Source of the DNA: Desulfobacteraceae bacterium
GTDB taxonomy: Bacteria; Desulfobacterota; Desulfobacteria; Desulfobacterales; Desulfosarcinaceae
NCBI GenBank assembly: GCA_013003715.1
Contig: JABDIN010000007.1
Span: 1 to 64,000, forward strand
Direction: 5' to 3'
DNA length: 64,000 nucleotides
Below, in pieces: positions 19,361-42,879 of the stretch. A program made the translations under genes and the position numbers. Each line of letters begins with the position of its first letter. Within the stretch, counting starts at the first letter, position 1. The notes under the pieces were generated by a model that saw nothing but the letters and a program-made list of their open reading frames with translations, had not been told where the DNA came from and ran no database searches.

Positions 19361-19591
19361 ATGAAAAACTTGATCCACAAAATTGCAGAGGCGCTGGTAG
19401 ATCAACCGGATAAAATAAACATTTCAGAGATTGTCGGCACCCAAAGCATTGTGTTGGAATTGAAAGTTGCAAAGGAAGATACCGGGAAAATAATTGGAAA
19501 ACACGGTCGAACCGCTCATGCCATCAGAACGATCCTAAATGGGGCTTCCGGAAAACTTAAAAAACAGATTATCCTCGAAATTTTGGAATAA
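19361..19591 (+). CDS. khpA: KH-domain RNA-binding protein KhpA
   Basis: A 76-residue protein that is a single type II KH domain with the RNA-contacting loop GKIIGKHGRTAHAIR (GxxG = GKHG). KhpA/YlqC proteins bind structured RNAs and often work with KhpB/Jag in cell-division and sRNA control. Length and sequence fit the family well. Start is supported by AAGGAG ten bases upstream. It usually sits in the rpsP-rimM-trmD cluster; here it is a lone gene, so this may be an additional copy. A hairpin with T-rich arm follows at 19639. Confidence 0.85.
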   Translation: MKNLIHKIAEALVDQPDKINISEIVGTQSIVLELKVAKEDTGKIIGKHGRTAHAIRTILNGASGKLKKQIILEILE

Positions 19592-19787: not shown

Positions 19788-19815
19788 TTGACATAATGGT
19801 TTTCTTGAATATAAT
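19788..19815 (+). promoter_or_regulatory. Consensus sigma70 promoter
   Basis: Perfect TTGACA (19788-19793), 16-bp spacer and perfect TATAAT (19810-19815), the strongest promoter match seen in the window. It faces the short unit ending in the terminator at 20013-20046. Confidence 0.75.
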
Positions 19816-19921
19816 GCGCCAATCTTTCTCTTCGCTATTTTTGATTAAGATGACTCGCGTTCATTTCATCCAACCATCTATGCAATGACAGAGGACAATA
19901 CCATGAAAGGAGACGTAAAAT

Positions 19922-19987
19922 ATGAATCAATTACACAAGTATGACCAATATCATGCGTCTTCGCATCCCGGGGGATTCCTCTTATGA
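19922..19987 (+). CDS. Possible 21-residue micro-protein
   Basis: ATG at 19922 preceded by AAAGGAG at seven to ten bases, the best ribosome binding site in the unit. The product reads MNQLHKYDQYHASSHPGGFL plus Leu; it is His- and Tyr-rich with a short hydrophobic end. A 13-codon frame (19903-19944) overlaps it, an arrangement suggesting translational coupling. No family recognised. It may instead be a chance frame in a regulatory RNA. Confidence 0.35.
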   Translation: MNQLHKYDQYHASSHPGGFLL

Positions 19988-20012
19988 GCTTTGTGACATA
20001 AACAGAGACTCA

Positions 20013-20046
20013 AACCGCGGATGTGAAATTATCCGCGGTTTTTTTT
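20013..20046 (+). terminator. Strong rho-independent terminator
   Basis: AACCGCGGAT-GTGAAATT-ATCCGCGGTT is a perfect ten-bp stem followed by a run of T. It closes the short transcription unit that begins at the 19788 promoter. Confidence 0.9.
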
Positions 20047-20342
20047 ATTCCATTCAAAGAAACCGCGGACCATATTGATCCCGGTTTGTCGCTTTTTTCG
20101 CTATAGCTACCTGAAATTCTAAGCGTCTGATCATTCAAAAAACGCCAAAGGTATTAATGGCGCACGTCGCCAGGTTACACTGCATCAGTGGCGTCATCAT
20201 TCGACTAATTGTTTTCAACTTCAACCCATAACCCGATGGCTGGTTTGGGAACCACCATGGCCAGGGCCTTAAATTCCGGTCTCCCATATGACTCAAGTCT
20301 CAAACCACAGTCCATCTCATCAACCGAAACAGGAGGTTTCAC

Positions 20343-20486
20343 ATGAATCACCATCCGATCAACGTCAATGGCAATCTTATGCAAATGGAACGCAACGCTA
20401 ACGATCATCTGGCATTTCCCTACTACTTCAACCAAGTACCTTTTAAAATATGGAGGCAATTATGTATGCTCATCCTGCAGCAATAG
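20343..20486 (+). CDS. Small hypothetical protein, 47 aa
   Basis: ATG at 20343 with a textbook CAGGAGG ribosome binding site. The product begins MNHHPINVNGNLMQMERNAN and ends with a hydrophobic IWRQLCMLILQQ. Its last eight codons overlap the start of the next gene in another frame, and the next gene's ribosome binding site lies within it, so translation may be coupled. No family recognised. About 300 bp of sequence upstream (20047-20342) has an ACGCCA/TGGCGT hairpin-prone stretch but no other gene. Confidence 0.45.
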   Translation: MNHHPINVNGNLMQMERNANDHLAFPYYFNQVPFKIWRQLCMLILQQ

Positions 20487-20719
20487 AAACAATGATGAAA
20501 GAGCGGCATGGCGATCTTTTACGCTACGCCGAAAAGGAACGAGTAATTAATACACTTAAACTTAACTTGGATAAACGGCCCAGAATGAGGGCAAGAGCTA
20601 TTCTTAAAATGGCGGAATTCCTGATTTCAACAGGCTCCAAGATTAAGCGCAAGTACAATCCATTAGTATATCCGGGTACAGAAGCCTATGGTACAAGTGC
20701 AAAAAGAACATACATTTAA
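20462..20719 (+). CDS. Small basic hypothetical protein, 85 aa
   Basis: Start at 20462 is set by GGAGG six bases upstream. The protein begins MYAHPAAIETMMKERHGDLL and continues with an amphipathic Arg/Lys-rich helix and a basic C-terminus ending KRTYI. The pattern HP..IE...KERH.DLLRYAE resembles short unnamed deltaproteobacterial proteins of 60-90 residues, but no function is known to me. A long perfect hairpin ends the unit at 20724-20771. Confidence 0.6.
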   Translation: MYAHPAAIETMMKERHGDLLRYAEKERVINTLKLNLDKRPRMRARAILKMAEFLISTGSKIKRKYNPLVYPGTEAYGTSAKRTYI

Positions 20720-20723
20720 AACA

Positions 20724-20771
20724 GAAAAGCTTCGCTCTGAACGGCAAGTCGGTGTTCAGGCGAAGCTTTTC
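20724..20771. terminator. Long hairpin ending the small-gene cluster
   Basis: GAAAAGCTTCGC pairs perfectly with GCGAAGCTTTTC, and an inner CTGAAC/GTTCAG stem extends the structure. The T/A-rich base makes it a likely bidirectional terminator between the small gene and the convergent acyltransferase. A second structure (CTACCTTCGGTAT with ATACC and GAAGGTAG, 20775-20837) follows directly. Confidence 0.65.
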
Positions 20772-42544: not shown

Positions 42545-42737
42545 GGTCTTCGGGAATACCCGTGTCAAAACAGTCTGTGCCATCTGTGTCCCCGCATAGG
42601 GTTCAGACAACAAAAGCAACGGCACTGACCGCTCTGATGGCAGTGGTAATTCGATACAGTCCCGGCAGTCAACCGGACGGAACCACAAACCGCGTCAACT
42701 CAACGGACTGGAAACACTTCCATCACAGGTACATTAA

Positions 42738-42852
42738 ATCTTTATCCCATCCAGACTATAACTGTCGGTACCGGATTTACACCGGTTCCTGCCGAATACT
42801 CGGCTCACGGACTTTAACCGCCGGTCGGGAATTACACCCAGCCCCTAAAGAT
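42738..42852 (-). ncRNA. FMN riboswitch aptamer (RFN element)
   Basis: Read on the minus strand: GGGGCTGGGTGTAATTCCCG, then ACCGGCGGTTAAAGTCCGTG, AGCCG, GGAACCGGTGTAAATCCGGT, ACCGACAGTTATAGTCTGGAT and GGGAT. These are all conserved RFN blocks in order, and the closing P1 stem ATCTTTA/TAAAGAT is perfect. It senses flavin mononucleotide and acts on the terminator 190 bp downstream. Confidence 0.95.
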
Positions 42853-42879
42853 CTAATGCGCATATCAATTTATCGACGG

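What the first reader, a model, noticed from the sequence alone, without database searches (positions are those of the whole stretch)
19788..20046. Compact promoter-peptide-terminator unit of unknown role
A perfect TTGACA-16-TATAAT promoter and perfect terminator enclose about 225 nt with only two tiny overlapping ORFs. This is the shape of a regulatory RNA, a toxin/antitoxin peptide or a micro-protein gene, and it is next to khpA, an RNA-binding protein gene.
Basis: partly seen in the sequence, partly recalled or inferred. Interest (0 to 1): 0.7.

Follow-up and report, generated by a model that had tools for sequence, protein, structure and literature searches.

The report
Leader-peptide attenuator before small genes
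The stretch looks like a genetic switch in which ribosomes reading a 21-residue peptide decide whether RNA polymerase stops or reads on into small genes of unknown function; the kind of switch is known, but the same arrangement before relatives of one of these genes in two other genera makes it a lead to what those genes do.

Summary
A perfect TTGACA-16-TATAAT promoter and a strong terminator (20012-20041) enclose two overlapping short ORFs. The promoter is one of 7 such sites in 5.5 Mb. Part of the 21-aa ORF can pair over 12 bp with the terminator's 5' arm and loop, giving an antiterminator. It exceeds chance and scores with E. coli leader-peptide attenuators, not sRNAs. Modelled ribosome positions switch the fold as in 6 of 7 known attenuators. 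The comparison that settled my reading came late. Relatives of the downstream 85-aa protein (p85) in two other genera follow the same arrangement: SD-led ORF of 25 or 22 aa, antiterminator in it, terminator, p85-like gene. So I read it as a ribosome-dependent transcription attenuator for p47-p85, whose function is unknown. The three leader peptides share no significant sequence, the signal is unknown, and nothing about expression is tested. The adjacent 'khpA' is an extra paralogue.

The parts
19788..19815 (+). Promoter TTGACA-16-TATAAT; T-rich stretch just upstream and GCGCC just after the -10 (seen by eye)
19822..20047 (+). Predicted attenuated leader RNA, about 225 nt (start inferred from the -10)
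   Evidence: inference from promoter and terminator; folds
19903..19944 (+). ORF1, 13 aa, weaker SD (GAGG), overlaps the start of ORF2
19922..19987 (+). ORF2, 21 aa MNQLHKYDQYHASSHPGGFLL plus stop; proposed leader peptide; SD AAAGGAG 19906-19912
19909..19962 (+). Hairpin 1:2 (19909-19917 with 19954-19962) that covers the SD of ORF2
   Evidence: z -3.63
19960..19971 (+). Antiterminator strand 2 (UUCGCAUCCCGG), inside ORF2
19985..20012 (+). Small hairpin between the antiterminator strands
   Evidence: z -3.75
20015..20027 (+). Antiterminator strand 3: terminator 5' arm plus part of its loop
20012..20047 (+). Intrinsic terminator 3:4, stem 20012-20041 plus T-tract
20056..20069 (+). Strand 5, complementary 13 of 14 to terminator 3' arm and T-tract (20032-20045); 4:5 hairpin possible in read-through RNA
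20343..20486 (+). p47, 47-aa ORF with strong SD, overlaps p85; candidate regulated gene
   Evidence: no family match
20462..20719 (+). p85, 85-aa protein of unknown function (ATG 20450 also possible); candidate regulated gene; relatives in two other genera follow a like leader

Best explanation
It is a ribosome-dependent transcription attenuator for the p47-p85 genes. A strong promoter starts a leader RNA with a 21-aa leader peptide (ORF2). If ribosomes translate ORF2 past about codon 11 they cover strand 2 (19960-19971), strand 3 stays free, the terminator forms and a short RNA of about 225 nt is released. If a ribosome is held in the first 9 or so codons (or in the overlapping ORF1), strand 2 pairs with strand 3, the terminator is pre-empted and polymerase reads on into p47-p85. 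Without translation, a hairpin covers the SD of ORF2 and termination is the expected default. In read-through RNA the terminator's 3' arm can pair with strand 5 further on. Shown in sequence or computation: promoter, SD-led ORF, the exclusive pairings 2:3 against 3:4 and 3:4 against 4:5, position-dependent energies, and two like units before p85 relatives. Inferred: transcription, translation, ribosome control, p47-p85 as target. Not known: the signal that holds the ribosome, and what p85 does.
For: Antiterminator of -19.3 kcal/mol in ORF2, reached by 2 of 1000 shuffles; SD-led ORF of 15+ codons with one this strong inside it: 0 of 5000. First by z of 19 terminator-like sites in the window. 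Calibration with equal upstream length of 60 nt: this unit z -4.28, 7 E. coli attenuators -4.40 to -1.00, 11 sRNAs -0.43 to +1.43. Ribosome-position profile falls to 4.7 kcal/mol at codon 8 and rises to 17.4, as in 6 of 7 attenuators. Recurrence: of 12 p85-family loci scored, own included, 3 have a terminator with antiterminator z about -3.5 or lower and an SD-led ORF: this one; G005 (same family, other genus; 25-aa ORF, antiterminator -23.5); G048 (other family; 22-aa ORF, -19.4, profile 3.3 to -0.8 to 14.6). In 258,124 bases of other held loci, 0 of 6 strong terminators has such an antiterminator. No + strand sigma70-like site of 9/12 or better between terminator and p47.
Against: A less targeted test is not significant: refolding gain reached by 124 of 1000 shuffles. 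Without the terminator the leader folds only as well as shuffles (z -0.93). 1:2 and 2:3 share only 3 nt and coexist in the fold to 20031, so 1:2 is at best a weak competitor. ORF2 has no codon run: His 3 of 20, P 0.014 before correction for six residues tested. The three leader peptides are no more alike than shuffles (1664, 1046 and 5000 of 5000). The ORF2 stop lies 13 nt past strand 2, so a ribosome there covers strand 2 only partly. The terminator wins at equilibrium at every position. The profile is not a clean classifier: hisL shows no clear dip, and SgrT dips to 4.6. The p85 loci were inspected after the idea was formed; 9 of 12 lack the arrangement; the control holds only 6 terminators. 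No expression data.
Confidence: 0.72

Rival explanations
1. A free-standing trans-acting small RNA, possibly dual-function like SgrS or Spot 42, with a strong promoter and its own terminator.
For: Promoter-to-terminator length of about 225 nt, weakly folded 5' end (z +0.48 for 19822-19889), SD-led ORF.
Against: sRNA terminators lack an upstream antiterminator of this strength; like units before p85 relatives in two other genera; no Rfam family at gathering score; 6S RNA lies elsewhere.
Confidence: 0.12
2. An attenuator or riboswitch that senses a small molecule, protein or RNA and not the ribosome; the short ORFs are incidental.
For: The 2:3 and 3:4 pairings do not by themselves need a ribosome; the three leader peptides are not alike.
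Against: In all three units the antiterminator strand lies in or at the end of an SD-led ORF; for this one 0 of 5000 shuffles; no Rfam match above gathering score.
Confidence: 0.08
3. A messenger for a 21-aa small protein whose translation is dampened by the hairpin that covers its SD.
For: Good SD and spacing for ORF2; SD-covering hairpin z -3.63.
Against: No convincing relative of the peptide in 388 other genomes of the order (best outside E 0.012, on the strand opposite an open frame that reads like a membrane protein), nor its exact first 9 residues in genome contigs; 152 of 5000 shuffles give such an ORF.
Confidence: 0.05
4. Chance arrangement: a real promoter and terminator around non-functional sequence.
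For: No sequence conservation found; the antiterminator was noticed after folding.
Against: Several departures from chance and recurrence before p85 relatives.
Confidence: 0.03

Closest known systems
Leader-peptide transcription attenuators of enterobacteria (thrL, pheL, hisL, trpL, ilvL, leuL, ivbL, pheM)
   Same: SD-led short ORF; antiterminator strand in or near the end of the ORF that pairs with the terminator 5' arm; position-dependent switch
   Different: No amino-acid run; target of unknown function; strand 2 ends 13 nt before the stop here; extra 4:5 pairing absent in the 7 attenuators tested
Drug- or stress-sensing leader peptides: B. subtilis yxjB (PMC6851288) and E. coli toiL-topAI (PMC12121999); abstract and outline seen of each
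   Same: Short ORF as ribosome sensor without an amino-acid run (recalled for yxjB); SD-covering structure in the leader; a terminator as well in yxjB
   Different: In toiL the control is translation and Rho; as I take the abstracts, the hidden SD there is that of the gene, here it is that of the leader ORF; no rRNA methylase or toxin-antitoxin pair here
Sinorhizobium trp attenuator with trans-acting peptide peTrpL (PMC7298713, abstract and outline seen)
   Same: Leader peptide encoded by an attenuator
   Different: Whether this peptide or RNA acts in trans is untested
E. coli dual-function sRNAs SgrS and Spot 42
   Same: Short RNA with own promoter, small ORF and intrinsic terminator
   Different: Their terminators lack a comparable antiterminator (z -0.43 and -0.21 against -4.28 at 60 nt)

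Membership tests
Ribosome-dependent leader-peptide attenuator | Short ORF with ribosome-binding site in the leader | tested here: met
   SD energy -8.7 against -6.9 to -11.0 for six neighbouring genes
Ribosome-dependent leader-peptide attenuator | Intrinsic terminator after the ORF with a competing antiterminator | tested here: met
Ribosome-dependent leader-peptide attenuator | Ribosome position in the ORF decides between the two folds | tested here: inconclusive
   energies agree with 6 of 7 known attenuators, but no kinetics, and a ribosome at the stop covers strand 2 only partly
Ribosome-dependent leader-peptide attenuator | Codon run for the sensed amino acid (defines the amino-acid kind only) | tested here: not met
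   no run; His 3 of 20; so not filed as an amino-acid attenuator
Ribosome-dependent leader-peptide attenuator | Downstream gene on the same strand expressed by read-through | not testable with these tools
   p47-p85 lie downstream and p85 relatives follow like leaders; the transcript itself is unknown
Trans-acting sRNA | Own promoter and terminator | tested here: met
Trans-acting sRNA | Known RNA family or conserved RNA in relatives | tested here: inconclusive
   none found, but no relative of the same genus was available
6S RNA | Match to RF00013 | tested here: not met
   the genome's only match is at C93
Type I toxin or small membrane peptide | Hydrophobic membrane-spanning peptide | tested here: not met
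   by eye, ORF2 is mostly polar with a short hydrophobic end

The most novel reading that the evidence does not exclude
A new class of attenuator tied to the p85 protein family: fast-changing leader peptides that sense ribosome stalling in general rather than one amino acid, with, in this genome, a second leader ORF overlapping the first, a 4:5 hairpin that locks the read-through state, and a released 225-nt RNA or peptide that also acts in trans. p85 would then be a translation-stress protein.
Probability: 0.2. Interest if true: 0.65.

Novelty: new member of a known kind. Interest (0 to 1): 0.5.

Why it matters
If right, it gives an orphan family of tiny proteins a regulatory handle: in three genera a p85 relative would be made when ribosomes stall in a leader peptide, which points to translation stress or tRNA charging as the place to look for its function. 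It also shows that an 'sRNA-like' unit can be told from an sRNA by a calibrated test of antiterminator strength and by reading upstream of relatives of the downstream gene. [quoted passage not shown]

Tried and rejected
KhpA partner RNA: unsupported; the window gene is one of 5 matches in this genome, and the copy between genes that I read by eye as rpsP and rimM is on C93.

6S RNA: rejected. Rfam below threshold: 10 matches at E 0.075-7.8, among them a His leader and a trpB motif, far under gathering scores; treated as chance.

Peptide relatives: 41 of 389 genomes at E up to 1, own included; I inspected six loci and found none convincing. Class-wide search 4 of 389 at E up to 0.1, own included; all rows shown there are of the same order or family. 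Exact patterns: 0 in genome contigs, 0 in viral contigs; records of the own genome may be left out there. Leader RNA model: own genome plus one match at E 0.139 among 291 genomes, not followed. lpxL-like neighbour as probe for close relatives: none confirmed. p85 in viral contigs: none.

p85: no family in Pfam, NCBIfam or PHROGs for the window protein; best among 8 members E 0.052 (Pfam) and 0.046 (NCBIfam); one weak PADLOC match, E 0.014. Single-sequence AlphaFold model: two helices, pLDDT 69.5, pTM 0.27, too poor to search. Relatives in 8 of 291 genomes of the order, own included, at E up to 0.01, three of those matches weak (E above 0.005); in 134 genomes of the phylum only the own genome at E up to 0.001. 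Two p85 relatives sit beside ArsR-type regulators.

Read on the right side, L101 has one and in the other three I see none. The script scored the places of L096, L101 and L102 again (as L127, L134 and L135); it did not score L097. It also showed a like leader in L133 (the place of L067), 497 nt before the p85 match, which I had not seen. These facts raised my odds for the attenuator from 0.55 to 0.72.

Leader peptide likeness: tested and not significant. Residues with NAU/NAC codons (His, Tyr, Asn, Asp) are 7 of 20, 4 of 24 and 5 of 21 in the three leaders against 15.2% in four window proteins (P 0.024, 0.51, 0.21): not pursued.

Papers: searches listed nothing on this locus; (leader peptide, transcription attenuation, antiterminator, Desulfo) found 0 papers.

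Full report
WHAT IS THERE. The window has a perfect promoter at 19788-19815; 197 nt after its end starts a 12-bp terminator stem, 20012-20041, with a T-tract. Both exceed chance. A search of the whole genome for TTGACA-N15..18-TATAAT gives 7 places and 1 for the reversed control. Two of the 7 lead into tRNA-Glu and tRNA-Leu, one precedes a gene that I read by eye as an ArsR-type regulator, one is ours, and three I did not assign. That the -10 and the GCGCC after it resemble E. coli rrnB P1 is recalled, not tested.

Between promoter and terminator lie ORF1 (13 aa, 19903-19944) and ORF2 (21 aa, 19922-19987 with stop). ORF2 has a good SD. A hairpin 19909-19917/19954-19962 covers that SD and folds better than shuffles (z -3.63, 2 of 200 as good). 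The leader with the terminator has z -3.20, without it only -0.93, so the terminator carries much of that signal.

THE SWITCH. Folding the RNA up to the terminator loop put the terminator's 5' arm in a helix with ORF2: UUCGCAUCCCGG (19960-19971) with 20015-20027, 12 bp with one bulge. In the same fold most of hairpin 1:2 is kept, so 1:2 and 2:3 exclude each other only marginally. The duplex energy of -19.3 kcal/mol is reached by 2 of 1000 shuffles of 19922-20011 and by 16 of 5000 shuffles of the whole leader; an SD-led ORF of at least 15 codons occurs in 102 of 5000, and both with the strand inside the ORF in 0 of 5000. A less targeted measure, the gain in folding energy, is not significant (124 of 1000).

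CALIBRATION. Among 19 terminator-like sites that my script found in the window, this one has the lowest z at both upstream lengths; at 190 nt two others tie with it in the share of shuffles reached, and one of these has a stronger raw duplex; these two have poor T-tracts by eye. I then fetched 8 E. coli K-12 attenuators and 15 sRNA genes and scored them in the same way. The 8 attenuators score z -4.82 to -0.80. Of the 15 sRNAs, ArcZ gave no terminator, GlmZ (-2.10) was scored on a wrong hairpin of -2.7 kcal/mol, and the other 13 score -0.75 to +1.80. The picks for pheM, RprA and MicA took in part of the T-tract, and upstream lengths were shorter for several sRNAs. The window scores -3.9, third of 23. 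With equal lengths (7 attenuators and 11 sRNAs, leaving out pheM, GlmZ, ArcZ, RprA and MicA) the window scores -4.28 at 60 nt, attenuators -4.40 to -1.00, sRNAs -0.43 to +1.43; at 90 nt the window -3.86, attenuators -5.01 to -0.92, sRNAs -1.25 (OmrA) to +1.20, so the two groups overlap there. The window lies with the clear attenuators in each case. Four of eight attenuators score above -1.5, so the measure is not sensitive.

RIBOSOME POSITIONS. Leaving free only RNA 15 nt or more downstream of the P site, I compared the antiterminator and terminator states. The gap in favour of the terminator is 13.2 kcal/mol without a ribosome, 5.4-9.8 for ORF2 codons 1-7, 4.7 and 5.8 at codons 8 and 9, 11.8 at codon 10, and 15.1-17.4 from codon 11 on. 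A dip followed by a rise at the end of the ORF is also seen in thrL, pheL, trpL, leuL, ilvL and ivbL; hisL shows no clear dip (20.8-28.1). Of two sRNA ORFs, SpfP stays at 14.2-22.5, and SgrT wanders between 4.6 and 11.2 and ends low. A ribosome anywhere in ORF1 leaves the antiterminator free (gap 4.9-9.8). The model ignores kinetics and RNA upstream of the ribosome. The ORF2 stop lies 13 nt beyond strand 2, less tidy than in textbook cases.

LIKE UNITS BEFORE p85 RELATIVES. On the same strand downstream are p47 (20343-20486) and p85 (20462-20719), overlapping, each with a strong SD, then an inverted repeat at 20725-20770 (by eye) facing an lpxL-like gene on the other strand. A profile of p85 relatives (8 rows) found matches in 8 of 291 genomes of the order. 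I scored 12 such loci, own included, for a terminator with antiterminator and an SD-led ORF within 500 nt upstream. Three have them. Besides the window, G005 (same family, another genus; L101/L134 turned) has an SD-led 25-aa ORF, MTKVHTAYHQIQASVSRMRPHWRSP (1284-1361), an antiterminator of -23.5 kcal/mol in it (z -3.45 to -3.56), a terminator of -25.3, and the p85 relative 81 nt later. G048 (another family; L133) has TTGACA-16-GATAGC (9 of 12), an SD-led 22-aa ORF, MKHFWFTQNILTQYDGKGGSDG (149-217), an antiterminator of -19.4 that overlaps the end of the ORF (z -5.1 to -5.2), a terminator of -18.2, then an ORF at 377 that looks p85-like by eye, and the p85 match 497 nt after the terminator. Their profiles go 14.6 to 9.2 to 22.1 and 3.3 to -0.8 to 14.6. 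The three leader peptides are not more alike than shuffles. Nine of the 12 loci, some of them weak matches, lack the arrangement; one of these has a TTGACA-15-TATAAT site of its own by eye (L066).

THE EXTRA PAIRING. 20056-20069 is complementary at 13 of 14 positions to the terminator's 3' arm and T-tract. It scores z -5.57 (0 of 500), while 7 of the 8 attenuators and 8 of the 15 sRNAs, those that I scored, give -0.76 to +1.24. For 19822-20090 the states with 2:3 and with 3:4 forced lie at -71.3 and -72.2, and the best fold (-72.7) has 4:5 with strand 3 paired further downstream; for 19822-20342 the best fold has 2:3 and 4:5. As strand 5 is made after the decision, I take it as a lock or stabiliser, not a sensor; this is inference.

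CONSERVATION OF SEQUENCE. None found: DNA, own genome plus three matches of 23-27 nt among 60 genomes; peptide; RNA model; exact patterns. The relatives include no other member of the genus. Attenuators are called rapidly evolving in PMC2965389 (abstract).

KHPA. The KH protein at 19361-19591 is KhpA-like (Pfam KH_KhpA-B); NCBIfam's closest model is just under its cut-off (99.7 of 106 bits). The genome has 5 such matches and one relative has 10. The copy between genes that I read as rpsP and rimM is on another contig.

VERDICT. The unit is real in sequence, and the best reading is a leader-peptide attenuator, a known kind of regulation, here before a family of small proteins of unknown function, with an unknown signal. 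No call names the organism.

Noticed in passing
window 19361-19591: KhpA-like KH protein is an extra paralogue; one relative has 10 such matches; the copy in the usual gene order is at C93.
   Followed up: partly
L133 (G048:C124) 149-273 and 285-322: A like leader unit with two successive terminator-like hairpins before p85-like ORFs; the second hairpin has a weaker antiterminator (z about -2).
   Followed up: partly
L134/L101 turned (G005:C110) 1284-1420: A like leader unit 81 nt before a p85 relative.
   Followed up: partly
window 42735-42855 (-): FMN riboswitch, 108 bits.
   Followed up: no
window 34509 (+) and 44169 (-): Two other hairpins with strong upstream pairing to their 5' arm (z -2.9 and -2.4), but poor T-tracts.
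   Followed up: no
L088, L085 (own genome): Perfect promoters leading into tRNA-Glu and tRNA-Leu, a sign that perfect consensus sites in this genome are used.
   Followed up: yes
L066 1390-1500: p85 relative behind a TTGACA-15-TATAAT site whose -10 lies in a palindrome, with an ArsR-type gene after it.
   Followed up: no
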